64,000 nucleotides of DNA from assembly GCF_001019615.1 (NCBI RefSeq), contig NZ_JNBQ01000006.1, forward strand, positions 62,001-126,000, given 5' to 3'. This document shows positions 25,928 through 53,379 of the stretch, one piece after another. The notes under the pieces were generated by a model, which was not told where the DNA came from, searched no databases, and worked only from the letters and a program-made list of their open reading frames with translations. The translations under genes and the position numbers were made by a program. Numbering within the stretch: the stretch's first letter is position 1; the number at the start of each line of letters is the position of its first letter. This stretch comes from Cellulosimicrobium funkei. GTDB taxonomy: Bacteria > Actinomycetota > Actinomycetes > Actinomycetales > Cellulomonadaceae.

Positions 25928-28900
25928 GTGAATGCCGCAGCCCGCACCAGCTCAGCCGCCCGGAGCGTGGCCGATCCTGCTCGGCTGCCCGCGACCGCTC
26001 CCGACGGGACCGACCAGGTCGACGCGCCGGACGACGACGTGACGCCGCCCCGCCCCGTGCTCGTCCCCGAGCGCACCACGGCCGACCTCGTCGACGAGGC
26101 CGTGACGCGGTGGCGCGCCGGCCTCGTCGAGCTCGCCGGGGGGTCGTCGCTCGCCGACGTCTCGCTCCTCGGCGACGCCGTCGTCGACCTGACGGCGGCC
26201 CACCCCTCGGGCGTCGCCCAGCTCTTCGCCGGGCGACCGACCCGGCTCTCGAACCTGTTCCGCGAGGGCGGGTCGCTGCCCGCCGCGCGGCGCCGCGCGC
26301 GTGCCGTCGTGGTCCGCGCGGCCGAGCACGCCCAGCGCTACGGCGTCGCGCCCACGTACCTGGCGATCGGGGTCGCGACCTGGACCCAGAGCCTCGCGGC
26401 ACCGCTCGCAGAGGACGACGTCGCGGCGCTGGCGCGGGTCGCGGGTCGCACCCCCACGACGATCGTCCCGAGCGCGGGCGACGACGTGGCCGCGCCGGGC
26501 GCCGCCGGACCCGGCGACGCCACGGACGGGGACTCGCAGGGACTCGCGGCTCCCGGCGCGCAGGGCGAGCCCGTCGTGCACGACGGCGCACGCGTCCCCG
26601 ACGCCGGTCACCACCCCCGGGACGCGGTCGACGAGGGCGAGCAGGAGCCGACGTCCCGCACCGTGCGCGCCCCCGTGCTCCTGCGCCCCCTGACCGTGAC
26701 CCCGCGCGGGGACGGCGAGACCGACTACGAGCTGACCCTCGAGCCGACGGCCGAGATCAACCCGCTCCTCGCGCGCACGCTGCGCGCGCACGGCGCGCTC
26801 CTCGACCCGGTGACGCTCGCGCGCTCCACGTTCACCGGCGCGGGCTTCGACCCCGGCGACGCGACCCGTCGCATCGCCGCGCTCGGCCAGGCCGTCCTCG
26901 ACGACTTCGACCTGACCCACCGCGTCCTCGTCGGGACGTTCGTGCACCCCGGGCAGGTCCTCGTCGACGACCTCGACGAGCTCGCGCCCGCACTGGAGCG
27001 GCACGAGGTCGTCGCCGCGCTCGCCGGGGACGAGAAGTCCGCCACCGCGCTGCGCGCCGAGCTGCCCGCGCGGCGCGTCGGCGACGCGGACCCCGTGCAC
27101 GAGCGCGGCGCCGGCGACCTCGACCCGTCCCAGCGCCACGTCGTCGACGTGCTCGCGAGCGGGTCGCACCTCTTCGTCGACGCGCCGGCCGGTTCCGACG
27201 TCGCCGGCACGCTCGCGGCCGTCGTCGCCGAGGCGGCGGCGTCGGGGCGCCACGTGCTGTACGTCCCGGGCCACCGCCGGGCCGCGGACGCGCTCCTCGC
27301 ACGGCTCGACGAACTGGGCCTGGGCGGCCTCGTGCTCGACATCGTCCCGGAGCCGACGTGGCGCGAGACGGCGTCCCACCGCCTCCTGTCCGCGATGGCG
27401 ACCGAGCCCGAGCCGGGCGAGGACGAGGACCTCGCCCGGACGCGCGACGCTCTGCTCGGCGCGCGGGCCCGGCTCGCCGGGTACATCGAGGCGCTGCACC
27501 TCGTGCGGGACCCGTGGGGCGTGTCCGCCTACGACGCGCTCCAGGCGCTCGCCCGGCTCACCGCCGAGCGCCCGGCACCCGACACCCGGGTGCGCCTGAC
27601 GACCGACGTCGTGCTCGGCGTCGGGCCGCAGCGGGAGCGGATCGCGGCCGAGCTGCGCGAGGCCGCCCTGCTCGGCGCGTTCACCGCACGGGCGACCTCG
27701 ACCCCCTGGTACGGCGCCGCCCTCACCACGCCGCAGGAGGCGCACGACGCGCTCGTGCGCGTCGAGCGGCTGCGCACGCACACGCTCCCGCAGCTGCGCG
27801 CCCAGGTCGAGCAGGTCGCGCAGCGCACCGGGCTCACGCCCGCGACGACGCTGCGCCAGTGGGGCGACCAGCTCACCATGCTCGGAGGGATGCGCGGGAC
27901 GCTCGACGTGTTCCAGCCGCTCATCTTCGAACGCACCGCCCAGGACATGGTCGAGGCGACCGCGACCAAGCAGTGGCGCGAGCAGCGCGGCGTCGAGATG
28001 GGCTGGTTCGTCCGGCGCCGGCTGCGCCGCCAGGCGCGCGACATGGTCCGCCCGGGCGTCCGCGTGCCCGACCTGCACGCCGCGCTCGTCGAGGTGCAGG
28101 CGCAGCGCGCGGTCTGGCAGGAGCAGTGCCCGCGCGGTGGCTGGCCCGTCCTGCCCGAGGGGCTGTCGGCGATCGAGGACACGCACGAGGCCGTGCGCAT
28201 CGACGTGGAGGAGCTCTCGCCCGCGCTCGACGGCACCCCCGGTGGCAACGACCTCCTCGACGCCCCGCTCGACGCGCTCGCGACGCGGCTGGACGCGCTC
28301 GCCGAGGACGCCGAGTCGCTCGACTCCCTGCCCGCGCGGACCGCGATCCTGCGCCGGCTCACCGACCTCGGCCTCGGCGAGCTCCTCGCCGATCTCGCGG
28401 CGCGCCGCGTCGAGCCCGACTTCGTCGGACCAGAGCTCGAGCTCGCGTGGTGGAGCTCGGTCTTCGAGCAGGTGCTCGCCCAGGACCAGGCGCTGGCCGG
28501 CCAGGACGGCGCCGGTCTCGACGCGCTCGCGCGCCGGTTCCGCGACCTCGACCGCACGCACGTCGCGTCCCTCGCGGCGCCCGTCCGCGCGGCGGTCCGC
28601 GACCACCTCGGGACCGCGATGCGCGAGCACCGCGACGAGGCCGAGGACCTGTTCACCGAGCTGCTCGAGGGCCGGCTCGTGAGCCTGCGGGAGACGGCCG
28701 AGAAGCACCCCGCCGTGCTGCGGCGCCTGCGTCCCGTGCTCGTCGCCACGCCGACCCTCGTGCCGCACCTCGTCCCCGCCACGCGCACCGTCGACCTCGT
28801 GGTGCTCGACGCGATCGAGCACGCGCCCGTCGAGCTCGTGCTCTCCGCACTCGCGCGCGGGAGGCAGGTCGTCGCGGTGGGCGACCCGCGTGCCGCGTCG

Positions 28901-30061
28901 ACCGACACCGTGCGCGACCTCGCCGAGCTCCTGCCGTCGGTCGAGCTCCTCGCCGACGGGTCGCGCCGTGACCCGTTCGTCACGACCTTCCTCGCCGAGC
29001 ACGGCTACGACGGCGTCCTGCGTCCCGCGCCCCTGCCGCGTGCCGAGGTCCTCGTCCAGCTCGACGTCGTCGACGGCGCCGGCATGCCCGACCCGACGTC
29101 GGGCGCGGTCGAGAGCACCCAGGCCGAGGTCGACCGGGTCGTCGAGGTCGCGATCGAGCACGCGCTCACGCGTCCCGACGAGTCCCTCGCGATCGTCACC
29201 GTCACCCCGCTGCACGCCGACCGCATCCGCGACGCCCTCCTCGTCGAGGTGCGCCAGAACCCCGCGCTCGCCGGCTTCTTCTCCGGGTCCCGCGCCGAGC
29301 CCGTCGTCGTCGCCGACGTGTCCGGCGTCGCCGGGCTCGTGCGCGACACCATCGTCCTGTCGGTCGGGTTCGGCCGGACGCCGCACGGCCGCGTGCTGCA
29401 CCGGTTCGGCATCCTCAACACGCCCGGCGCCGAGGCGATGCTGCTCGACTCCGTCGGCGCCACCCGCCGCCGCCTCCACGTCGTGTCGTGCTTCACCGCG
29501 GGCGACCTCGACCCCGAGCGCCTGCGCGGGGCCGGGGCCCGCCTCCTCGCCGAGGTCCTCGACCTCGCCGAGCAGCGCAGCGGCGCCGCCGACCAGGTGA
29601 CCCTCGGCAACGGCGTCGACCTCGGCGGCAGCCCCGACCGCCTCGTGCTCGACCTCGCCGAGCGCCTCTGGCGCGCCGGCCTCGTCGTCGAGACCGACTA
29701 CGGGATCGGCGACGGCGACCGCATACCGCTCGTCGTCGGCCACCCCGACCTGCCCGGCGAGCTCCTCGTCGCGGTCCTCACCGACGACGCCGCGTACGTC
29801 GCCGAGCGCAGCGTGCGCGTGCGGGACCGGCAGGTGGCCGAGCGCCTCGAGCGCATCGGGTGGACCGTCGCGCAGGTGTGGTCCGCGGCCGCGTTCCTCG
29901 ACCCCGCCAAGGAGGCCGAGCGCATCCGGCGGGTCGTGCAGGCAGTGCGCGACGAGCGGCTCCCGGAGACCGGGGGCGTCGCGCAGACCGGCGGGGGCGA
30001 CAGGATCGTCGTCGTGCCGGTGATCGACGACGACGAGCAGCACGGCGACGACGACCTCTGA
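25928..30061 (+). CDS. Large SF1-helicase-like protein with degraded ATPase and Vsr-like nuclease motifs
   Basis: A 1377-residue cytosolic protein. The order of parts follows DUF4011-type SF1 helicases with a C-terminal Vsr-like (MTES_1575) endonuclease fold. The Walker A site reads APAGSDVA (residues 419-426) where helicases have GPPGTGKT, so the lysine is Val425. The motif II position is LDAIEH (D961), and motif III is VGDPRAAS (985-991). In the C-terminal domain (~1240-1355) the expected RIDLAV is RIPLVV (P1267) and the acidic E of the E-x-D pair is Leu1284, although D1286, VRDRQ and the final GWTVAQVWS are kept. It is therefore probably without ATPase or nuclease activity. TAGCGT lies 6 bases before GTG 25928. 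Confidence 0.75.
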   Translation: MNAAARTSSAARSVADPARLPATAPDGTDQVDAPDDDVTPPRPVLVPERTTADLVDEAVTRWRAGLVELAGGSSLADVSLLGDAVVDLTAAHPSGVAQLFAGRPTRLSNLFREGGSLPAARRRARAVVVRAAEHAQRYGVAPTYLAIGVATWTQSLAAPLAEDDVAALARVAGRTPTTIVPSAGDDVAAPGAAGPGDATDGDSQGLAAPGAQGEPVVHDGARVPDAGHHPRDAVDEGEQEPTSRTVRAPVLLRPLTVTPRGDGETDYELTLEPTAEINPLLARTLRAHGALLDPVTLARSTFTGAGFDPGDATRRIAALGQAVLDDFDLTHRVLVGTFVHPGQVLVDDLDELAPALERHEVVAALAGDEKSATALRAELPARRVGDADPVHERGAGDLDPSQRHVVDVLASGSHLFVDAPAGSDVAGTLAAVVAEAAASGRHVLYVPGHRRAADALLARLDELGLGGLVLDIVPEPTWRETASHRLLSAMATEPEPGEDEDLARTRDALLGARARLAGYIEALHLVRDPWGVSAYDALQALARLTAERPAPDTRVRLTTDVVLGVGPQRERIAAELREAALLGAFTARATSTPWYGAALTTPQEAHDALVRVERLRTHTLPQLRAQVEQVAQRTGLTPATTLRQWGDQLTMLGGMRGTLDVFQPLIFERTAQDMVEATATKQWREQRGVEMGWFVRRRLRRQARDMVRPGVRVPDLHAALVEVQAQRAVWQEQCPRGGWPVLPEGLSAIEDTHEAVRIDVEELSPALDGTPGGNDLLDAPLDALATRLDALAEDAESLDSLPARTAILRRLTDLGLGELLADLAARRVEPDFVGPELELAWWSSVFEQVLAQDQALAGQDGAGLDALARRFRDLDRTHVASLAAPVRAAVRDHLGTAMREHRDEAEDLFTELLEGRLVSLRETAEKHPAVLRRLRPVLVATPTLVPHLVPATRTVDLVVLDAIEHAPVELVLSALARGRQVVAVGDPRAASTDTVRDLAELLPSVELLADGSRRDPFVTTFLAEHGYDGVLRPAPLPRAEVLVQLDVVDGAGMPDPTSGAVESTQAEVDRVVEVAIEHALTRPDESLAIVTVTPLHADRIRDALLVEVRQNPALAGFFSGSRAEPVVVADVSGVAGLVRDTIVLSVGFGRTPHGRVLHRFGILNTPGAEAMLLDSVGATRRRLHVVSCFTAGDLDPERLRGAGARLLAEVLDLAEQRSGAADQVTLGNGVDLGGSPDRLVLDLAERLWRAGLVVETDYGIGDGDRIPLVVGHPDLPGELLVAVLTDDAAYVAERSVRVRDRQVAERLERIGWTVAQVWSAAAFLDPAKEAERIRRVVQAVRDERLPETGGVAQTGGGDRIVVVPVIDDDEQHGDDDL

Positions 30062-38173: not shown

Positions 38174-38806
38174 CTACGGGAGCCAGCGCCAGCCGAGGGG
38201 GGTCGCGACGGCGTCGACGGTCTTGTCGTGGGACTCGACCGGGAGCGGGCGGTCGGACGCGTCGTACACCTCCTCGGGGAAGACGACGGCGACGACCTTG
38301 GTCCCGGGGCGCAGGTGCTCGAGGGCGCGGTCGTACCAGCCGCCGCCCTGGCCGAGCCGGACGCCGCGCGAGTCGACGGCGAGCGCGGGGGCGACGACGA
38401 CGTCGGCCTGCGCGATGGCCTCGGCGCCGAGCGGCGGGGTGCCGGGTTCGGGGGGTCGGCCGGGGGCGCGGACCTGGAGGTCGGCCGGGCCGTCGTACAC
38501 GGCCCAGTCGCGCTGGAGGCCGGCGCCGAGCACGGGGAGCAGGACGCGCACGCCGCGTGCGGAGAGACGTTCGAGCATCTCCGTCGTGCCGGGCTCGGCA
38601 GGGCGGGCCGCGTAGGTCGCGACGCACGTGGCGGCGGCGACCTCGGGGATGGTCTCGACGACGTCGGCGATCGCGGCGGCCGCTTCCTTGCGGAGCCGCT
38701 CGGACCGCGCCTGGCGGTTGGTGCGGATGGCCTTGCGGAGGATCTCCTTCGCGTCCTCGGCTTCGATGCTTCCGTGCAGGGGGTACGGCTGGACCGGGCC
38801 ACTCAT
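38174..38806 (-). CDS. 5-Formyltetrahydrofolate cyclo-ligase
   Basis: A 210-residue ATP-dependent enzyme converting 5-formyl-THF to methenyl-THF. Features: ILRKAIRTNRQARSER near the start, GVRVLLPVLG, VVVAPALAVDSRGVRLGQGGGWYDRAL (nucleotide and folate site) and VVAVVFPEEVYD. In Actinobacteria it usually sits between FmdB/mscL genes and galU-moeA-rimJ; here other genes separate it from both groups. Confidence 0.9.
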   Translation of the reverse strand: MSGPVQPYPLHGSIEAEDAKEILRKAIRTNRQARSERLRKEAAAAIADVVETIPEVAAATCVATYAARPAEPGTTEMLERLSARGVRVLLPVLGAGLQRDWAVYDGPADLQVRAPGRPPEPGTPPLGAEAIAQADVVVAPALAVDSRGVRLGQGGGWYDRALEHLRPGTKVVAVVFPEEVYDASDRPLPVESHDKTVDAVATPLGWRWLP

Positions 38807-38985: not shown

Positions 38986-41232
38986 ATGACCGCGACGACG
39001 CCCGCGAAGCCCAGCGCGACCACCCAGCGACCGCGGGGGAGCGCCCACGTCCGGACCGCGAGGGCCGCCGTCGTGCTCGCCGCGGGGCACGACGCCGCGT
39101 CGCGCGAGCTCCTGTCCCGGCCGCTGGGCAGCGCGACGGTCGTCGAGCTGGCCGTGGCGAACGTGCGCCGCGTGGTCGACGCGAGCCGCATCGTCGTCGT
39201 GGTGGCGCCGGACGACCCGACGGTGCGCGAGCTGCTCGGCGAGGACGTCGTCTACGTGGAGCAGGAGGCGCCGCTCGGCACGGGCGACGCGGTCCTCGCG
39301 GCACGCGGGGCCGTCGCCTCCGTGCTGGGGCTCGGGGTCGACGAGCCGGTGCTGGTCGCGTACGCGGACACGCCCCTGCTGCGCTCGGAGTCGCTCCTGG
39401 GCCTGCTGACGCGCCACACGCTCACGGGCGCGGACCTGTCGCTCCTCTCCGCCGTCGTGGACGACCCGGACGGCTACGGCCGCGTGGTGCGTGCCGAGGG
39501 CGAGATCACGGCGATCCTCGAGTCGTCGGAGGCGGGCGGTGTCGCCGAGCCGCGCACGGAGATCAACGTCGGTGCCTACGTCGCGGCGCCCGGGCTGCTG
39601 TTCGGCGAGCTCGAGCGCATGGCGTCCGACGGCGAGCACCGCCTCACGGAGCTGGCGCGCCGCGTCATCGGGGCGGGGAAGCGCATCTCGTCGTACCGGA
39701 TCGTCGACGTCGACGAGGTGCGCGGCATCAACACGCCGGACGAGCTCGCGCAGGCGGCGGACATCGTCCTCAAGCGCCTGTTCGTCCCGAAGAAGAACAC
39801 GGACACCAAGATCGTCTTCGGGACGGGCGGCTGGCGCGCGGTCATCGGCGAGGGGTACACGCTCGCGAACGTGCGCCGGCTGTGCCAGGCGATCGCGAAC
39901 GAGACGATCCGCCGGGGACTGGACGCGAAGGGCGTCGTGATCGGCGGCGACCGCCGCTTCCTCTCGCGCGAGTCGGCCATCGCGGCGGCCGAGGTCTTCG
40001 CGGGCAACAACATCGCGGTCACGCTCCTGCCCGACGACGTCCCGACCCCGCTCGTGACGTTCGCCGCCCCCTACCTCGGCGCGGCGTACGGCATCATCGT
40101 CACCTCGAGCCACAACCCGCCCGAGTGGAACGGCATGAAGGTGTTCCGCCAGGACGGCTCGCTCCCGCTCGACGACGAGACCGACCGCTACCAGGACGAG
40201 GCCAACGCGCTGTCGGTCGACGACGTCATCACGCTCGACATCGACGTGGCGCGCCGCGCCGGCGTCGTGGTGGACCGGTCGCTCACCGACCCGTACGTCG
40301 ACGCGATCGAGAAGATCATCGACGTGGACGCCGTGCGTGGCTCGGACCTCCAGGTGATCGTCGACCCGATGTACGGGACGAGCCAGCTCACGCTCGGCAC
40401 GATCCTGTCCGACATGCGCGTGCGCTCGGAGTTCATCCACGCGACCCACAACCCCCTGTTCGGCGGGGTCGCGCCCGCGCCGGACCTCCAGCGCCTGAGC
40501 ACGCTCGTGACGATGATCCAGCAGGGCGGAGGCCGCTACGACCTCGGCATGGCCACGGACGGCGACTCCGACCGCATCGGGATCGTCGACGAGACCGGCG
40601 AGTACATCTCCACGAACGACCTGCTCCTCCTCCTGTACTGGTACCTGCACGAGGTCCGCGGCGAGAAGGGCGGCGTCGTGCGCAACCTCGCGACGACGCA
40701 CCTGCTCGACCGCCTCGCAGCCCACTTCGGCGAGGAGTCCCGCGAGGTCAAGGTCGGCTTCAAGCACGTCACCGCGGGCATGGAGGACATCGGCGCCGTG
40801 CTCGGTGGCGAGTCGTCCGGCGGCCTGACGATCCGCGGCTGGATCCTCGGCAAGGACGGCATCTTCGCGTGCGCCCTGGTGGCCGAGATGCTGGCCCGCA
40901 CGGGCAAGCGGATCTCCGAGCTGCGCGCGATGATCTACGAGATCACGGGTCGCCTCTACACGCTCGAGGCGGGCGTGCCGGCGACGCCGGAGATGCGCGT
41001 CGAGGTGCCTCGGCGCCTCGAGGCGGAGCCGCTCACGCACGTCGGCCCGTACCCCGTCGTCTCGGTGTCCCACCTCGACGGCACCAAGATCCTCCTCGAG
41101 AACGACAACTGGGCGCTCCTGCGGTTCTCCGGCACCGAGCCCGTCCTGCGCATGTTCGTCGAGGCGGACTCTCCCGAGAAGGCCGCCGAGCTCCTCGAGT
41201 GGCTCCAAGGGTTCGTCACCGCCGGCGTCTGA
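38986..41232 (+). CDS. Fusion: GlmU-like nucleotidyltransferase + phosphohexomutase
   Basis: A 748-residue two-domain protein. Residues ~25-255 follow the GlmU uridyltransferase: LAAG (31-34), PLGTGDAV, YADTPLL with Asp128, GYGR (163-166), EINVG with Asn194, and Asn249 in GINTP. The entry loop that should read GxGTRM...PK is replaced by HDAASRELLSRPL, so activity is uncertain. Residues ~265-748 are a complete alpha-D-phosphohexomutase: Ser375 in TSSHNP, metal loop DGDSDR (525-530), sugar loop GGESSGG and phosphate loop RFSGTEP. With the GH94 gene 75 bases downstream, it may act on GlcNAc-1-phosphate or glucose-1-phosphate. GAGGA precedes the ATG. Confidence 0.85.
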   Translation: MTATTPAKPSATTQRPRGSAHVRTARAAVVLAAGHDAASRELLSRPLGSATVVELAVANVRRVVDASRIVVVVAPDDPTVRELLGEDVVYVEQEAPLGTGDAVLAARGAVASVLGLGVDEPVLVAYADTPLLRSESLLGLLTRHTLTGADLSLLSAVVDDPDGYGRVVRAEGEITAILESSEAGGVAEPRTEINVGAYVAAPGLLFGELERMASDGEHRLTELARRVIGAGKRISSYRIVDVDEVRGINTPDELAQAADIVLKRLFVPKKNTDTKIVFGTGGWRAVIGEGYTLANVRRLCQAIANETIRRGLDAKGVVIGGDRRFLSRESAIAAAEVFAGNNIAVTLLPDDVPTPLVTFAAPYLGAAYGIIVTSSHNPPEWNGMKVFRQDGSLPLDDETDRYQDEANALSVDDVITLDIDVARRAGVVVDRSLTDPYVDAIEKIIDVDAVRGSDLQVIVDPMYGTSQLTLGTILSDMRVRSEFIHATHNPLFGGVAPAPDLQRLSTLVTMIQQGGGRYDLGMATDGDSDRIGIVDETGEYISTNDLLLLLYWYLHEVRGEKGGVVRNLATTHLLDRLAAHFGEESREVKVGFKHVTAGMEDIGAVLGGESSGGLTIRGWILGKDGIFACALVAEMLARTGKRISELRAMIYEITGRLYTLEAGVPATPEMRVEVPRRLEAEPLTHVGPYPVVSVSHLDGTKILLENDNWALLRFSGTEPVLRMFVEADSPEKAAELLEWLQGFVTAGV

Positions 41233-41307
41233 CGGCACCGGCATCTTTCCCCCGCTCCACCCCGCCCCGCCCCAGCCCCCACCCCCACGACAGGAACCAG
41301 AGCAACG

Positions 41308-43764
41308 ATGCGCTACGGCCACTTCGACACCGCGCACGACGAGTACGTCGTCGAGCGCCCCGACGTCCCCGTCTCGTGGACGAACTATCTCGGCAGCAAG
41401 AACCTGTGCACCGTGCTGTCGCACACCGGCGGGGGCTACTCGTACTACAAGAGCTCGCAGTACGGCCGGATCACGCGCTTCCGGCAGAACGGTGTCCCGG
41501 TCGACCGGCCGGGCCACTACGTGTACCTGCGCGACGACGCGGACGGCGACTTCTGGTCGGTGTCGTGGCAGCCGGTCGGCAAGCCGTTCGTCGGCCCCGG
41601 CGAGGAGCTCGACCCCGCGGGCGGCGCGGGCCGCTGGACGACCCGGCACGGGCTCGGCTACTCGACGTTCCGTGCCGAGTACAAGGGTGTCGACGCCGAG
41701 CAGACGGTCTTCATCCCCGTGGACGACGACGTCGAGGTCTGGGACGTCCGGCTGACGAACACGACGGACGAGGTGCGTGAGCTCACCGTCGGGTCGTACG
41801 TGGAGTTCAGCTTCCACACGATCACGATCGACAACCAGAACCTCCAGATGTCGCTCTACGCGTCCGGCTCCTCCTACGAGGACGGCATCATCGAGTACGA
41901 CTTCTACTACGAGCCGTGGACGTACCACTTCTTCGCCTCGAGCGAGACGCCGTCGTCGTACGACTCGCTGCGCGACAACTTCATCGGCCCGTACCGCTCC
42001 GAGGCGAACCCGATCGCGATCGAGCGCGGGCACGGTTCGAACGAGTCCGCGACGACGCAGAACCACTGCGGCTCGCTCCAGCACACGATCACGCTCGCGC
42101 CGGGCGAGACCAAGCGCCTCGTCTACATGCTCGGCTACGGCTCGCGCGACGCGGCCGGTCGGGCGATCCAGGCGAAGTACTCGGACGTCGCGACGGTCGA
42201 CGCCGAGCGCGCACGGCTCCGCGCGTTCTGGCGTGCCAAGCAGGACAAGCTGCGGATCCGCACGCCCCACGAGGGCATGAACACGATGATCAACTCGTGG
42301 ACCCTCCTCCAGGCGGAGACGTGCGTGCAGTGGTCGCGCTTCGCGTCGTTCGTCGAGGTGGGCGGCCGCGCGGGCCTCGGGTACCGCGACACCGCGCAGG
42401 ACGTCATGAGCGTCATCCACTCGAACCCGACGAAGACGCGCCAGCGCATCGTCGAGCTCCTGCGCGCCCAGACGGAGGCCGGGTACGGCCTGCACCTCTT
42501 CGACCCGAAGGCGTTCGACCCCGACGCCGAGAAGCTGCCCGACGTCCCGTCACCGACCATCGTGCCCACGGTCGACCCGAAGGACCTCATCCACGGGCTC
42601 GAGGACACGTGCTCGGACGACCACCTGTGGCTCGTGCCGTCGGTCGTCGAGTACGTCAAGGAGACGGGCGACCGCTCGTTCCTCGACCTGGAGATCCCGT
42701 TCGCCGAGGGCACGCCCGGCACGGTCTACGACCACCTGGTCAGGGCGCTCGAGTTCTCCGCGGAACAGGTGGGCCAGAACGGCGTCGCGCTCGGCCTGCG
42801 CGCCGACTGGAACGACTGCCTCAACCTCGGCGGCGGCGAGACGTCGCTCGTGACCTTCCTGCACGCATGGGCGATCGGCGCGTTCCTCGAGATCGCCGAG
42901 CCGCTCGCCGCGGCGGGCGACGAGCGGGCCGAGGCGGACGTCGCGCGGTTCACGGCCGAGCGCGAGCGCATCGCCAAGGTCGCGGACGCCCAGCTCTGGG
43001 ACGGCCGCTGGTGGATCCGCGGCTACACGCGCGACGGAGTGAAGATCGGCTCGGCAGAGAACGAGGAGGGCAAGATCTTCCTCGAGCACCAGGCCTGGCC
43101 CGTCATCGCGGGCATCACGAGCCAGGAGCGCGGCGAGGCGTCGATGGACGCGGTGCGCGAGCTGCTCGGCTCCGAGTACGGCAACCACCTCAACTGGCCG
43201 GCGTTCACGAAGGTCGACGACACGGTCGGGTTCGTCACCCGCGTCTACCCGGGCATCAAGGAGAACGCCGCGATCTTCTCGCACCCCAACGCGTGGCCGA
43301 TCATCGCCGAGGCGATGCTCGGGCGCGGCGACGAGGCCGTGCAGTTCTACGACGCGATCCTGCCGTACCACCAGAACGACAACATCGAGGTGCGGGGCGC
43401 GGAGCCGTACGCGTACGTCCAGTTCCTCTACGGCCGCGACCACGAGTGGTTCGGCAAGGCGCAGAACCCGTGGCTCACCGGGACGGCCGGCTGGATGTAC
43501 ACCGCCGTGACCAAGTACGTGCTCGGCGTGCGCCTCGCGCTCGACGGCCTCGTCGTCGACCCGTCGATCCCGAAGGACTGGGACGGGTTCGAGGTGCGCC
43601 GCGAGTGGCGCGGCGCCGTCTACGACATCGAGGTCCGCAACCCCGACCACGTGTCGAAGGGCGTGCGCTCCGTGACCGTCGACGGCGTCGAGCACGACCC
43701 GGGCGCCCCGATCCCCGCGCTGCCGGAGGGCACCGAGGCGAAGGTCGTCGTCACGCTGGGCTGA
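41308..43764 (+). CDS. GH94 phosphorylase, N,N'-diacetylchitobiose phosphorylase-like
   Basis: An 818-residue cytosolic enzyme of family GH94, which splits beta-linked disaccharides with phosphate. RPGHYVYLRDDADGDFWSVS, GGRAGLGYRDTAQD, TCSDDHLWLVPS and RADWNDCLNLGGGE are visible; Asp503 in the WND triplet is the general acid. These stretches resemble the Vibrio chitobiose enzyme as I recall it, more than Cellulomonas cellobiose phosphorylase, which has GRGMGFRDSNQD at the same place. Expected products are GlcNAc-1-phosphate and GlcNAc. No signal peptide. Cellobiose, cellodextrin or another beta-glucoside remains possible. It is the second gene after the mutase fusion. Confidence 0.85.
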   Translation: MRYGHFDTAHDEYVVERPDVPVSWTNYLGSKNLCTVLSHTGGGYSYYKSSQYGRITRFRQNGVPVDRPGHYVYLRDDADGDFWSVSWQPVGKPFVGPGEELDPAGGAGRWTTRHGLGYSTFRAEYKGVDAEQTVFIPVDDDVEVWDVRLTNTTDEVRELTVGSYVEFSFHTITIDNQNLQMSLYASGSSYEDGIIEYDFYYEPWTYHFFASSETPSSYDSLRDNFIGPYRSEANPIAIERGHGSNESATTQNHCGSLQHTITLAPGETKRLVYMLGYGSRDAAGRAIQAKYSDVATVDAERARLRAFWRAKQDKLRIRTPHEGMNTMINSWTLLQAETCVQWSRFASFVEVGGRAGLGYRDTAQDVMSVIHSNPTKTRQRIVELLRAQTEAGYGLHLFDPKAFDPDAEKLPDVPSPTIVPTVDPKDLIHGLEDTCSDDHLWLVPSVVEYVKETGDRSFLDLEIPFAEGTPGTVYDHLVRALEFSAEQVGQNGVALGLRADWNDCLNLGGGETSLVTFLHAWAIGAFLEIAEPLAAAGDERAEADVARFTAERERIAKVADAQLWDGRWWIRGYTRDGVKIGSAENEEGKIFLEHQAWPVIAGITSQERGEASMDAVRELLGSEYGNHLNWPAFTKVDDTVGFVTRVYPGIKENAAIFSHPNAWPIIAEAMLGRGDEAVQFYDAILPYHQNDNIEVRGAEPYAYVQFLYGRDHEWFGKAQNPWLTGTAGWMYTAVTKYVLGVRLALDGLVVDPSIPKDWDGFEVRREWRGAVYDIEVRNPDHVSKGVRSVTVDGVEHDPGAPIPALPEGTEAKVVVTLG

Positions 43765-47025: not shown

Positions 47026-47601
47026 ATGGCACAGTCAATCGTGGAAGTCGTCAAGGTCATCGCACCGATCGCCCTCCAGGCGCTCGCCACCGCCGCCCAG
47101 GCACTGCTCGCCGACGAGGCGACCGCGGCCGCCGTCGAGCGTCTGCCCGAGAAGAAGGCCGCTCCGGCGGACGACGACTGGGGCGCCATCATCACGACGG
47201 ACACCTGGCAGTTCTGCGAGTCGAAGTTCGCCACGCAGTACGACTACTACTACCAGGGCCTGGGTTCGAAGCCCGTCAACGGTGCGCTGCCCATCGCCGC
47301 CGCCGAGGACATCATCGTGTGGGAGCAGAAGAACAACGTCTCCGACGTCCAGGCGTACCTGCAGACGGTGTTCAGGGACTCGATCGGGGCCTCCGACTCG
47401 ATCGAGATCTCCCAGAACCTGGGGACTCTCTTCATGGACCGCTTCAAGGAGGAGTCCCTCGACTGGACGCCCTTCTCCAAGCGGTACAACTTCCCGGACA
47501 AGCTCATCGTCGACACCTTCATGGTCACGGCCTCCGCCCACGATGAGGACGACAACCTGGCGGGCGTCGCGAGCTACTGCTTCGTCGCCTACAACGGGTG
47601 A
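47026..47601 (+). CDS. Unknown protein, first of an accessory pair
   Basis: A 191-residue acidic protein without recognised domain. Residues 4-29 form a hydrophobic/amphipathic helix (IVEVVKVIAPIALQALATA) too polar at its ends for a cleaved signal. The rest is aromatic-rich, with QYDYYYQGLG and WEQKNNVSDVQAYL, and uses more A/T-ending and Tyr/Asn/Lys codons than neighbouring genes. AAGGGG lies upstream of the ATG. The next gene starts 6 bases after its stop, so they form an operon and may be functional partners. Confidence 0.65.
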   Translation: MAQSIVEVVKVIAPIALQALATAAQALLADEATAAAVERLPEKKAAPADDDWGAIITTDTWQFCESKFATQYDYYYQGLGSKPVNGALPIAAAEDIIVWEQKNNVSDVQAYLQTVFRDSIGASDSIEISQNLGTLFMDRFKEESLDWTPFSKRYNFPDKLIVDTFMVTASAHDEDDNLAGVASYCFVAYNG

Positions 47602-47607
47602 CCGGTC

Positions 47608-48339
47608 ATGGTCATCATCTACCGGGGCATGAAGGTGGACCCGGCCCACGACGACCAGCCGCTGGTCGAGGACGGCAACGGGAACGCGCTGGGCGTGCGG
47701 TCGACCGGGGCGAGCCCGGACGTCGTGACCTACCAGCAGAACACCCAGGCGTGGGTCGCGCCGGAGCACCTCGGGGAGCCTCAGGGCATCTCGGTGGCCG
47801 TCGGCTCGGGCTGCAACCTGCCGAACCACCGGCGGCCCAAGGGTGCACCCTGGAACGGGACGGGCGCGGCCGGGCTGCGTGTGTGGCAGCTCGACTCCGC
47901 CACGCTCACGCCGGCCCAGCTCGCTGCGGTCGCGGCGCCGATCCCGGGCCAGCCGCACCACTACGTCGTCGCGCCCGGAGAGGCGATGTCGCTCGCGCAG
48001 TACCAGGGCTACGTCGCGGGCACGATGGGAGACTGGACGTTCGCGCCCGACCCGGATCCCGTGTGCGTGGCGGCAGTCTTCGAAGGAGCAGCGGTGGAAC
48101 CGCATCTCGTCCGGCTCGCCGGCGGCGTGGCCGACGGCGACCACCCTGCCGAGCTCGTCGACGCGATCGTCGAGGCCAACCGGGCGGGCACCGGCCGCGA
48201 CGAGCTGATCGCCGGGATCGAGTCCGAGGTCGCTCGTGCCGAGGCAGCCGGGAACGACGACGGGGCCGAACGGCTGCGCGGGGTGCTCGACCGCCTGACC
48301 GGGTGGTGTGCTCCGTCGAGCCGGATCGAGCTGACCTGA
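47608..48339 (+). CDS. Unknown protein, second of the accessory pair; distant ADP-ribosyltransferase look possible
   Basis: A 243-residue protein without recognised family. It opens MVIIYRGMKVDPAH and later has GISVAVGSG and HHYVVAPGEAMSLAQYQGY. The early YRG, a central strand with Ser and a late HYVVxP with Glu recall the R-S-E layout of small ADP-ribosyltransferase toxins such as Tse2, but this is only pattern resemblance. The last ~75 residues are a separate helical region (VDAIVEANRAGTGRDELIAG). No signal peptide. If the first part is a toxin, the preceding gene might encode its partner. Confidence 0.6.
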   Translation: MVIIYRGMKVDPAHDDQPLVEDGNGNALGVRSTGASPDVVTYQQNTQAWVAPEHLGEPQGISVAVGSGCNLPNHRRPKGAPWNGTGAAGLRVWQLDSATLTPAQLAAVAAPIPGQPHHYVVAPGEAMSLAQYQGYVAGTMGDWTFAPDPDPVCVAAVFEGAAVEPHLVRLAGGVADGDHPAELVDAIVEANRAGTGRDELIAGIESEVARAEAAGNDDGAERLRGVLDRLTGWCAPSSRIELT

Positions 48340-48465
48340 GCCGTCGTCACGGACGGCGGGAGGTCCTGGCGGGGTCGGAGGTCTGTGGGCCGATCCCGTC
48401 AGGGCCTCCTCGTCACGTCGGTGACGCTCGTCGGTGGCGGTCGGGCAGGCGGGTGCGCGCGCACC

Positions 48466-48471
48466 TATCCT
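48466..48471 (+). promoter_or_regulatory. Leaderless -10 element (TATCCT) for the FGE gene
   Basis: TATCCT is followed by six bases and GTG 48478. Confidence 0.5.
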
Positions 48472-48477
48472 GACCGT

Positions 48478-49380
48478 GTGGCCCTCACCGAGCTCGTCAC
48501 CGTCCCCGGCGGGACGTTCCGCATGGGTTCCGACCGCCACTATCCGGAGGAAGGGCCGGCGCACGACCGGGAGGTCGGGCCGTTCCTGCTGGAGCGGCAC
48601 GCGGTGACGAACGCGCAGTTCGCGGCGTTCGTCGCGGACACCGGCTACGTGACCGTCGCGGAGCGCGCGCCCGACCCGGCCGACTTCCCGGGGGCCGACC
48701 CGGCGGACCTGGTGCCCGGGGGTCTCGTGTTCACCCCGACGCCGGGTCCGGTCGACCTGCGCGACTGGCGGCAGTGGTGGCGGTGGCAGCCGGGGGCGTC
48801 GTGGCGTGCGCCGCAGGGGCCGGGGTCCGACGTCGACGACCGTCTGGACCACCCCGTGGTGCTCGTCGCGTTCGAGGACGCGTCGGCCTACGCGGCGTGG
48901 GCGGGCCGGCGCCTGCCCACGGAGGCCGAGTGGGAGCGCGCGGCGCGGGGCGGGCTGGACGACGCCGAGTTCGCGTGGGGCGACGAGCTCGCGCCGGGCG
49001 GTCGCCCGATGGCGAACACGTGGCGGGGCCGGTTCCCGTACCTCAACGAGGGGTGGGGCGGCACGTCGCCCGTCGGTTCCTACGAGCCGAACGCGTACGG
49101 GCTGGTGGACCTCGTCGGGAACACGTGGGAGTGGACGGCCGACACGTTCGGCCCCCGTCACGTCGTCCCGGGGACGCGCGGGCCCGACGCCGGTGCGCGG
49201 CCGAACCTCCTCGCCCCGACGACGTCGCCGCAGGTCCTGCGCGTCACCAAGGGCGGCTCGCACCTGTGCGCGCCGGAGTACTGCCGCCGGTACCGGCCCG
49301 CGGCCCGGTCCCCGCAGTCGGACGACAGCGCGACGACCCACCTCGGGTTCCGCTGCGCCGCGGACGTCAACGCCGGCTGA
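48478..49380 (+). CDS. Formylglycine-generating enzyme (sulfatase-activating)
   Basis: A 300-residue enzyme that oxidises the active-site cysteine of sulfatases to formylglycine, using copper and oxygen. VTVPGGTFRMGSDRHYPEEG and RLPTEAEWERAARGG mark the FGE-sulfatase fold; GNTWEWTADTF follows. The KGGSHLCAPEYCRRYRPAAR segment holds Cys264 and Cys269, the copper-binding pair with the spacing of Streptomyces FGE. No sulfatase gene lies in the window, so its client must be elsewhere. The start is set by the -10 at 48466. Confidence 0.9.
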   Translation: MALTELVTVPGGTFRMGSDRHYPEEGPAHDREVGPFLLERHAVTNAQFAAFVADTGYVTVAERAPDPADFPGADPADLVPGGLVFTPTPGPVDLRDWRQWWRWQPGASWRAPQGPGSDVDDRLDHPVVLVAFEDASAYAAWAGRRLPTEAEWERAARGGLDDAEFAWGDELAPGGRPMANTWRGRFPYLNEGWGGTSPVGSYEPNAYGLVDLVGNTWEWTADTFGPRHVVPGTRGPDAGARPNLLAPTTSPQVLRVTKGGSHLCAPEYCRRYRPAARSPQSDDSATTHLGFRCAADVNAG

Positions 49381-51777: not shown

Positions 51778-51873
51778 CCCGGAGGCGCTTGGCCGCGCCG
51801 GGAGCGGCGGGTTAGGGTGTGTCGCTCGCAAAAGCCGAATCGATTCGATCCCAGCCAGACGACGAGGTACCCG

Positions 51874-53379
51874 ATGGTCTCGGTCATCCCCCAGCCCCTG
51901 CACGTCGAGCCCGGGACGCACCACGTCCCCGTCGCCACGCTGGAGGTCCACGCGCTCGGTCTCGAGCGGACCGCCCCGTGGCTCGGGGACCTGGCCGCCT
52001 CGCTCCTGAGCGGCCTCGACGGCGTCGCCGCGACGCGCGACGACCCGGCGTCCGGAGCCTCGGTCGCTGCCTCGTCGGGCTCTGCGACCCGCACCGCGCT
52101 CGTGCTCCGGATCGACGAGCTGGCCGGTCCGGAGGGTTCCACGAGCCCGGAGCGGTACAGCCTCGTCGCGGACGACGCAGGGATCACCGCGACGGCGGCC
52201 GAGCCCGCCGGGCTGCTCTACGCGGTGCAGACGCTGCGGCAGCTCGTCGAGGCGCCCGGCCCGGGCGACGAGCCCGCGCGGGTGCCCCACGTCGTCGTGC
52301 ACGACGCGCCCCGCTACCCCTGGCGCGGCCTGTCCGTGGACGTCGCGCGGACGTTCTTCGGTCCCGACGCGCTGCGCGCCGTGATCGACGTCGCGGCGGC
52401 GTACAAGCTCAACGTGCTCCACCTGCACCTCACGGACGACCAGGGCTGGCGCATCGAGTCGCCGTCCCGGCCCGAGCTCGCCAAGCTCTCCTCGGGGAGC
52501 GACACGTCCGGCGGCACGGGCGGGCACCTGTCGCTCGCGGACTTCCGCGCGTTGCAGGACTACGCCGCGGAGCGCTTCGTGCGGGTCGTGCCGGAGATCG
52601 ACGTCCCCGGCCACATCAACGCGGCGACGCACGTCTACGGCGACCTCATGCCCGACGGCGTCGCGACCGACGCCTACTCGGGCATCGAGGTCGGCTTCTC
52701 GCGCCTCACGTTCGACCTGCCCGCGACCGAGCCGTTCCTGCGCGACGTCTTCACGGACCTCGCCCACGCCACGGACGGCGAGCACGTGCACCTCGGTGGC
52801 GACGAGGTGCTGAAGATGGAGCCCGCGGAGTACGCGCGGTTCGTCGAGCTGTGCGAGCGCCTGGTGCTCGAGGCCGGCAAGAAGCCGGTCGCGTGGCAGG
52901 AGGCCGCGAAGGCGCCGCTGCGCCCGGGCACGATCGTGCAGTACTGGGACACGCACCCCATGGACCTCACGTACCTGGTCGACGCCGCGAAGGCCGGGGC
53001 GCGCATCATCCTGTCGCCGGCGAACCGCGTCTACCTCGACATGCGCTACACGGCCGAGTTCGACCCCACCCTGGGGCAGGACTGGGCGGGTCTCGTCGAG
53101 GTGCGCGACTCCTACGACTGGGAGCCCGAGGAGGTCGTGCCCGGCCTGCCGGTCGAGACGATCGAGGGTGTCGAGGCGGCGGTGTGGACCGAGCGCATCC
53201 CGACGCTCGACGCGCTGTTCACGATGCTCCTGCCGCGCCTGAGCGCCGTCGCGGAGGTCGGCTGGACCGCCCCGGACCGCAAGGACTGGGACGGCTTCCG
53301 TCGCCGCGTCGCCCGCGAGGCGCACGTCTGGCGCCGCGCGGGGATCGCGTTCCACGAGTCCGCGCAGGTCGACTGGTGA
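51874..53379 (+). CDS. GH20 beta-N-acetylhexosaminidase (cytosolic)
   Basis: A 501-residue glycosidase releasing terminal GlcNAc or GalNAc. The GH20b-like N-terminal domain precedes the barrel: RGLSVDVARTFFGPDALRAV, LNVLHLHLTDDQGWRIE, VVPEIDVPGHINAA, HLGGDEVLKM with catalytic pair Asp310-Glu311, and WQEAAKAP. There is no signal peptide, so it acts inside the cell on imported chitooligosaccharides or recycled wall fragments, which fits the GH94 enzyme. A -10 TAGGGT lies near 51812, and GAGGT precedes the ATG. Confidence 0.92.
   Translation: MVSVIPQPLHVEPGTHHVPVATLEVHALGLERTAPWLGDLAASLLSGLDGVAATRDDPASGASVAASSGSATRTALVLRIDELAGPEGSTSPERYSLVADDAGITATAAEPAGLLYAVQTLRQLVEAPGPGDEPARVPHVVVHDAPRYPWRGLSVDVARTFFGPDALRAVIDVAAAYKLNVLHLHLTDDQGWRIESPSRPELAKLSSGSDTSGGTGGHLSLADFRALQDYAAERFVRVVPEIDVPGHINAATHVYGDLMPDGVATDAYSGIEVGFSRLTFDLPATEPFLRDVFTDLAHATDGEHVHLGGDEVLKMEPAEYARFVELCERLVLEAGKKPVAWQEAAKAPLRPGTIVQYWDTHPMDLTYLVDAAKAGARIILSPANRVYLDMRYTAEFDPTLGQDWAGLVEVRDSYDWEPEEVVPGLPVETIEGVEAAVWTERIPTLDALFTMLLPRLSAVAEVGWTAPDRKDWDGFRRRVAREAHVWRRAGIAFHESAQVDW

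What the first reader, a model, noticed from the sequence alone, without database searches (positions are those of the whole stretch)
38986..43764. Nucleotidyltransferase-phosphohexomutase fusion paired with a chitobiose-type GH94 phosphorylase
Seen: a GlmU-like domain fused in one frame to a complete phosphohexomutase, 75 bases before a GH94 gene whose conserved stretches look like N,N'-diacetylchitobiose phosphorylase. Known: in Vibrio chitin loci a phosphohexomutase sits beside the chitobiose phosphorylase. Inference: GlcNAc-1-phosphate made by GH94 is either isomerised to GlcNAc-6-phosphate or uridylylated to UDP-GlcNAc by one polypeptide, linking chitin breakdown straight to wall synthesis. 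The transferase keeps metal and UTP residues (Asp128, Asn249, GYGR) but lost the GxGTRM/PK loop, so it may bind nucleotide as a sensor. I know of no described fusion of this kind.
Basis: partly seen in the sequence, partly recalled or inferred. Interest (0 to 1): 0.82.

Follow-up and report, generated by a model that had tools for sequence, protein, structure and literature searches.

The report
Dead GlmU domain fused to sugar-phosphate mutase
A soil bacterium makes a sugar-phosphate mutase joined to a copy of a wall-precursor enzyme that has lost its catalytic loop but kept most of its binding pocket, encoded next to an enzyme that probably splits the chitin fragment chitobiose, so the joined copy may act as a fuel gauge deciding whether chitin sugar is burned or built into cell wall.

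Summary
ORF 38986-41232 encodes one 748-aa protein: a GlmU-type uridylyltransferase domain (aa 26-262) joined to a complete four-domain phosphohexomutase (aa 275-741). After 75 bases comes an 818-aa GH94 protein whose closest solved relative is Vibrio proteolyticus chitobiose phosphorylase (1033 bits; next 500). The fusion is conserved: 32 of 37 loci of the first scan carry it, also in Chloroflexota and one Acidobacteriota MAG. In 39 of 42 fused loci examined, GH94 is the next gene. In 31 of 31 comparable fusions the catalytic GTRM loop and the essential lysine are gone, while Gln93, Gly98, Thr99, Asp128, Asn194, Thr221 and Asn249 (UTP/UDP-GlcNAc/metal pocket) are kept. The host also has a normal GlmU. 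Most likely: GH94 phosphorolyses chitobiose, the mutase turns GlcNAc-1-P into GlcNAc-6-P, and the dead GlmU domain binds UDP-GlcNAc (or GlcNAc-1-P) and tunes the mutase. Binding and regulation are inferred from conservation alone. A bifunctional uridylylating enzyme is disfavoured, not excluded: three fusion-carrying Actinomycetaceae genomes show no detectable GlmU. No description of this fusion appeared in the held papers searched.

The parts
38986..41232 (+). Fusion gene, 748 aa: pseudo-GlmU uridylyltransferase domain + alpha-D-phosphohexomutase
   Evidence: AF2 model mean pLDDT 84.2
39061..39771 (+). GlmU-type N-terminal domain (aa 26-262)
39088..39129 (+). Place of the lost catalytic loop (aa 35-48; GlmU GTRM..PK)
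   Evidence: G, T, R, M and K each 0 of 31 fusions, each 14 of 14 GlmU references; the loop is a few residues shorter, so the exact column for K depends on the alignment
39808..41208 (+). Phosphohexomutase part (aa 275-741) with phosphoserine loop SHNP, metal loop DGDSDR, sugar loop GESSGG, phosphate loop RFSGTEP
41308..43764 (+). GH94, N,N'-diacetylchitobiose phosphorylase type, 818 aa
38926..38946 (+). Operator-like sequence GTAGTTCGGACTCCTGACAAA, 15 of 20 to TTTGTTAGGnTTCCTAACAAA, upstream of the fusion
   Evidence: 2 of 300 random stretches of the window score as high; 18 of 20 in four of the 26 upstream stretches examined (L024, L030, L095, L106), 12 or fewer in twelve. The consensus was drawn by eye from some of the same loci
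38174..38802 (-). Divergent neighbour, 5-formyltetrahydrofolate cyclo-ligase family (not thought to be part of the pathway; start codon not settled)
   Evidence: PF01812
43909..44559 (+). GNAT acetyltransferase (RimJ-like), downstream neighbour (not thought to be part of the pathway)

Best explanation
A two-gene chitobiose catabolism unit. Shown: gene order, families, conserved catalytic motifs of the mutase, loss of the GlmU catalytic loop with conservation of most of the rest of the pocket. Inferred from families: GH94 splits intracellular (GlcNAc)2 with phosphate into GlcNAc and alpha-GlcNAc-1-P, and the mutase turns GlcNAc-1-P into GlcNAc-6-P for NagA and glycolysis. Inferred from conservation only: the N-terminal domain is a catalytically dead GlmU that still binds UDP-GlcNAc (or GlcNAc-1-P/UTP) and adjusts the mutase. 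When wall precursor is plentiful, GlcNAc-1-P is burned; when it is scarce, GlcNAc-1-P is spared for the separate, normal GlmU. The sign of the regulation could be the reverse.
For: GH94 identity. GH94 is the next gene in 39 of 42 fused loci examined. An unfused relative of the mutase (44%) lies directly after a 53%-identical GH94 in Subdoligranulum, with ABC sugar transporter genes nearby. Chloroflexota G874: fusion + GH94 beside a ROK regulator (best match NagC, below its cut-off) and ABC sugar transporter genes. Terriglobia MAG: AmpG-type transporter (below its cut-off), fusion, GH94, GH3 in a row. Host has a NagA-type gene (208.5 bits, below the curated cut-off of 225.65) and nine GH18 matches. 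Loop residues 0 of 31; Gln93, Gly98, Thr99, Asp128, Glu192, Asn194, Thr221, Asp241, Gly247, Asn249 31 of 31. Outside the loop, GlmU-invariant columns are invariant in the fusions 17 of 32 times, other columns 16 of 204 (Fisher p 6e-9, not corrected for relatedness). A GlmU over the family cut-off in 6 of 7 fusion genomes tested. Precedent for the mode: GMPPA, a catalytically inactive GDP-mannose pyrophosphorylase paralogue that binds GDP-mannose and inhibits GMPPB (PMC11228364, passages).
Against: No ligand binding or regulation was measured, and I did not relate the pocket to the mutase site in space. Sugar-pocket positions are not all kept: Glu179 27 of 31, Gly165 29 of 31, Arg166 28 of 31; of the 31 rows several are close relatives. 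Fusions occur without a chitobiose phosphorylase in G823 (no GH94 at E 1e-20) and G1057 (only a 34-41% GH94), and unfused relatives of the mutase occur in genomes without one (G1089, G1091 none; G1090 only a 27% match in a 2812-aa frame). In G684 and G1057 a UTP-glucose-1-phosphate uridylyltransferase (PF01704) gene sits just upstream, so the mutase may handle glucose phosphates too. Three fusion genomes lack a detectable GlmU.
Confidence: 0.5

Rival explanations
1. Bifunctional enzyme: despite the altered loop the N-terminal domain still makes UDP-GlcNAc from GlcNAc-1-P and UTP, so one protein sends chitobiose-derived GlcNAc-1-P either to catabolism or to wall synthesis.
For: Much of the GlmU pocket and both metal ligands are kept (ligand roles partly recalled). 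Non-canonical uridylyltransferases exist: GlmR makes UDP-GlcNAc (PMC10128056, passages). Of 101 genomes of the Actinomyces minihominis family, 3 of the 4 fusion carriers show no other GlmU match, against 11 of the other 97 (E 1e-20); a GlmU of the same family used as query found none in those three at E 1e-3.
Against: GTRM and the essential lysine are lost in 31 of 31; 6 of 7 fusion genomes tested have a GlmU over the cut-off; 11 relatives lack a GlmU match without having the fusion, so draft gaps or another enzyme must account for them (GlmR was not searched for); the three carriers form one clade in the tree (99/96; the fourth, G1033, was not in it), so they may be a single event.
Confidence: 0.13
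2. Structural role only: the dead domain is a folding, oligomerisation or docking module that holds the mutase and GH94 together, with the pocket kept by inertia.
For: Fusion and GH94 are nearly always neighbours (39 of 42 loci examined).
Against: Residues such as Gln93, Asp128, Asn194, Thr221 and Asn249 would not be expected to stay invariant over three phyla while the loop is lost.
Confidence: 0.2
3. The unit acts mainly on glucose sugars: GH94 on cello-oligosaccharides and the mutase as a phosphoglucomutase feeding UDP-glucose, with the domain sensing UDP-glucose.
For: A UTP-glucose-1-phosphate uridylyltransferase gene lies next to the fusion in G684 and G1057; mutases of this superfamily can be promiscuous (PgcA acts as a phosphoglucosamine mutase, PMC6797236, search listing).
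Against: GH94 scores twice as many bits against V. proteolyticus chitobiose phosphorylase as against any cellobiose phosphorylase; the domain is GlmU-type, not GalU-type (E 2.9e-44 versus 1.2e-8); NagC-like and AmpG-type neighbours.
Confidence: 0.12

Closest known systems
[quoted passage not shown]
   Same: A mutase gene beside a chitobiose phosphorylase gene; same inferred pathway (PMC5209532, passages)
   Different: The passages seen do not mention a fusion; the fusion to a dead GlmU domain is the new part. The Vibrio mutase sequence itself was not compared here
GlmU N-terminal uridylyltransferase domain
   Different: Catalytic loop and essential lysine lost; acetyltransferase half replaced by a mutase
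GMPPA, non-catalytic regulator of GDP-mannose pyrophosphorylase GMPPB
   Same: A dead sugar-nucleotide pyrophosphorylase that keeps product binding for regulation (PMC11228364, passages); here that is the proposal
   Different: GMPPA is a separate protein regulating a pyrophosphorylase; here the domain is GlmU-type and fused to a mutase, and binding and regulation are only inferred
GlmR (YvcK), UDP-GlcNAc-binding regulator and accessory uridylyltransferase
   Same: Ties UDP-GlcNAc level to hexosamine flux (PMC7525490 search listing; PMC10128056 passages)
   Different: Different protein; proposed to act on GlmS, not on a catabolic GlcNAc-1-P mutase

Membership tests
GlmU uridylyltransferase (N-terminal half) | GlmU-type nucleotidyltransferase fold | tested here: met
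GlmU uridylyltransferase (N-terminal half) | GxGTRM catalytic loop and PK lysine (K25) | tested here: not met
   0 of 31 fusions, 14 of 14 GlmU references (L106 and GlmU reference L067 dropped)
GlmU uridylyltransferase (N-terminal half) | Gln76 and Asp105 (UTP) and Asn227 (metal; recalled) | tested here: met
   Gln93, Asp128, Asn249 in 31 of 31
GlmU uridylyltransferase (N-terminal half) | C-terminal left-handed beta-helix acetyltransferase | tested here: not met
   Pfam finds only the mutase domains after aa 275
Alpha-D-phosphohexomutase superfamily | Four domains with phosphoserine, metal, sugar and phosphate loops | tested here: met
   PF02878, PF02879, PF02880, PF00408; S375, D525, D527, D529, E609, S611, R713, S715-T717 invariant in 27 of 27
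Alpha-D-phosphohexomutase superfamily | Activity on GlcNAc-1-P | not testable with these tools
   Below the cut-off of every NCBIfam mutase model it matches; needs an assay
GH94 chitobiose phosphorylase | GH94 domains | tested here: met
   PF17167 537.6 bits, PF06165 254.3 bits
GH94 chitobiose phosphorylase | Closest to characterised chitobiose rather than cellobiose phosphorylases | tested here: met
   1v7v 1032.8 bits; 8bou (chitobiose) 500.2; best cellobiose phosphorylase 498.8. No tree was built
GH94 chitobiose phosphorylase | Phosphorolysis of (GlcNAc)2 | not testable with these tools
   needs an assay
Dead pyrophosphorylase regulators (GMPPA-like mode) | Catalytic residues lost, pocket kept | tested here: met
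   (by sequence; three sugar-side positions kept in only 27-29 of 31)
Dead pyrophosphorylase regulators (GMPPA-like mode) | Binds the nucleotide sugar and changes partner activity | not testable with these tools
   needs binding and kinetic assays

The most novel reading that the evidence does not exclude
The loop-less GlmU domain is an active, non-canonical GlcNAc-1-P uridylyltransferase. Chitobiose phosphorylase plus the fusion then form a direct kinase-free route from chitin to UDP-GlcNAc, and in a clade of Actinomycetaceae this protein has taken the place of GlmU.
Probability: 0.12. Interest if true: 0.9.

Novelty: new variant of a known kind. Interest (0 to 1): 0.6.

Why it matters
Chitobiose phosphorylase yields GlcNAc-1-P, which sits exactly at the branch between burning chitin sugar and building peptidoglycan. 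A dead GlmU welded to the enzyme that commits GlcNAc-1-P to catabolism would be a built-in gauge at that branch, and a bacterial case of a pseudo-pyrophosphorylase regulator. It is directly testable with two purified proteins. If the domain proved active instead, it would be a new UDP-GlcNAc synthase and might explain the three fusion-carrying Actinomycetaceae without detectable GlmU.

Tried and rejected
Ordinary bifunctional GlmU-mutase: lowered, because the catalytic loop and lysine are absent in 31 of 31. Cellobiose-type GH94: disfavoured by bit scores. Sequencing artefact or one-strain oddity: rejected; the fusion recurs in many genera. Frame breaks in L032 and L036 look like local errors or decay and were left as they are.

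Fusion as a general actinobacterial trait: rejected; only the window's own genome scores above 100 bits among 396 phylum-level genomes, and 12 of 297 in the order, own genome included, have it. GlmU replacement as the main story: not adopted; 11 of 97 fusion-free genomes also lack a match, 7 of those 11 lack PF01704 too, as does the fusion carrier G1002, and GlmR was not searched for.

Mistakes and limits: translated the cyclo-ligase in the wrong frame and found nothing, corrected. In one search the query labelled UDPGP was by error the Actinomyces fusion itself; only one search uses the real UDPGP protein. L106 was dropped from the count because its N-terminal motif was not found; L067 was dropped from the GlmU references for the same kind of reason. 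Of 43 fused loci known, G448 was not fetched with its flank, so 42 were examined for GH94; the loci include near-duplicates of one genus and are not independent. G487, G501, G516, G616, G617 and G658 were taken as the same as loci from matching coordinates or contig lengths. The operator consensus was made by eye from some of the loci then scored, and for five of the 26 upstream stretches (L020, L025, L034, L035, L089) most random stretches score as high. In one search the N-terminal domain was barely tested because the mutase filled the list, so it was folded alone. Papers were mostly seen as listings; read passages. GH94 phylogeny was not built.

Full report
What is there. The window lies in a genome close to Cellulosimicrobium cellulans (98% identity of the fusion to C. 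cellulans records; contig C6 of G000). ORF 38986-41232 encodes 748 aa: an N-terminal nucleotidyltransferase domain and a complete four-domain phosphohexomutase. After 75 bases comes an 818-aa GH94 protein. The upstream neighbour is a divergent 5-formyltetrahydrofolate cyclo-ligase gene, the downstream one a GNAT acetyltransferase. No transporter or nag gene was identified directly beside the pair, but a GH20 hexosaminidase gene lies about 8 kb downstream at 51817-53379.

GH94 identity. Vibrio proteolyticus chitobiose phosphorylase (1v7v) matches over the whole length at 1032.8 bits. The next solved sequences are another chitobiose phosphorylase (8bou, 500.2) and cellobiose phosphorylases (498.8 and lower). 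GH94 chitobiose phosphorylases release alpha-GlcNAc-1-phosphate (PMC8950772, passages). No tree was built and no activity of this protein is known.

The mutase. Catalytic loops are invariant across 24 fused and three unfused sequences. The closest solved relatives are Thermus 1tuo and archaeal mutases. In a tree of 25 rows the 17 fused mutases fall on one side of a branch (83/74, short of firm support), with an unfused Ardenticatenia mutase next and Chloroflexota and Acidobacteriota fusions outside the actinobacterial ones. One origin, perhaps in Chloroflexota, with later spread fits this but is not proven. The host has four other mutase matches, on long branches in that tree.

Distribution. 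One search gave 37 loci: 32 fused (L032 and L036 with frame breaks), one cut at the contig start (L038), four unfused (L040-L043). Only the own genome exceeds 100 bits among 396 phylum-level genomes. The fusion is in 12 of 297 genomes of the order, in 4 of 301 genomes of the phylum of the Anaerolineales MAG (52 genomes matched; in the other 48 the frames are shorter and GlmU-like) and in 4 of 101 of the family of Actinomyces minihominis. GH94 is the next gene in 31 of the 32 fused loci (in L008 it is cut by the contig end) and in 8 of 10 further loci (the gap reaches about 430 bases in L088), 39 of 42 in all; a 43rd, G448, was not examined. The exceptions are L031, whose genome has an 88% GH94 at the edge of another contig; G1057, with only a 34-41% GH94; and G823, with none at E 1e-20.

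Context elsewhere. Chloroflexota G874: the pair lies beside a ROK regulator best matched by NagC (180.7 bits, cut-off 650) and ABC sugar transporter genes. Terriglobia MAG: AmpG-family transporter (141 bits, cut-off 350), fusion, GH94 and a GH3 of unsettled type in one direction. Subdoligranulum plasmid record: a 53% GH94 directly followed by a 44% unfused mutase, with ABC transporter genes further on. These point to N-acetylated amino sugars. Against a purely GlcNAc role, a PF01704 uridylyltransferase gene sits just upstream of the fusion in G684 and G1057. Operator-like TTTGTTAGGnTTCCTAACAAA sequences lie upstream in several actinobacterial genera (18 of 20 positions in L024, L030, L095 and L106, 17 in L026 and L105; 15 in the window; 12 or fewer in twelve of the 26 examined). 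The consensus was partly drawn from these loci.

Does the domain still catalyse? Six of seven fusion genomes tested have a GlmU over the family cut-off, so the fusion is not needed for UDP-GlcNAc there. The seventh, the A. minihominis genome, has none; with G1002 and G1057, three of four fusion carriers among 101 family members lack a detectable GlmU, against 11 of the other 97. The three form one clade in the tree (99/96), draft gaps cannot be excluded, and other enzymes can supply UDP-GlcNAc (GlmR: PMC10128056). This keeps an active, non-canonical domain alive at about 0.12.

Mechanism. The best reading is a catabolic branch with a gauge: GH94 makes GlcNAc-1-P, the mutase commits it to GlcNAc-6-P, and the dead GlmU domain reads UDP-GlcNAc. 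The closest precedent in mode is GMPPA, which is catalytically inactive, binds GDP-mannose and inhibits GMPPB (PMC11228364, passages). The pathway up to the mutase is well supported by families and neighbours. Binding and regulation rest on conservation alone.

Literature. In the held library, the searches listed no paper that by title or shown abstract describes this fusion; listings were capped, and subscription papers are mostly missing. A mutase beside a chitobiose phosphorylase is known from Vibrio (PMC5209532, passages).

Noticed in passing
window 51817-53379 (+): GH20 beta-N-acetylhexosaminidase family gene (240 bits) about 8 kb downstream of the GH94 gene.
   Followed up: partly
window 47608-48339 (+): Protein with a weak match to the Tse2 ADP-ribosyltransferase toxin family (E 3.3e-6), next to an ORF at 47026-47601 without a Pfam match and a formylglycine-generating-enzyme domain gene at 48385-49380.
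   Followed up: no
window 25928-30061 (+): 1377-aa ORF with a C-terminal MTES_1575-type nuclease domain.
   Followed up: no
G684, G1002, G1057 and 11 other genomes: 14 of 101 genomes of the Actinomyces minihominis family show no GlmU apart from the fusion at E 1e-20; only 24 of 101 have a match over the GlmU cut-off, and many others match only up to about position 290-350 of 452, as if most of the acetyltransferase half were missing.
   Followed up: partly
L010: Record titled Sphaerisporangium cinnabarinum ATCC 31213 carries a Cellulosimicrobium-like locus with the same lengths and near-equal identities as C. funkei L011, so it looks mislabelled (the two were not aligned to each other).
   Followed up: no
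L030 6484-7839 (+) and L104 8577-9929 (-): PF01704 UTP-glucose-1-phosphate uridylyltransferase gene just upstream of the fusion in two Actinomycetaceae genomes.
   Followed up: partly
L031: Oerskovia merdavium fusion without GH94 behind it; an 88% GH94 starts at base 103 of another contig, which suggests a rearrangement or an assembly join.
   Followed up: partly
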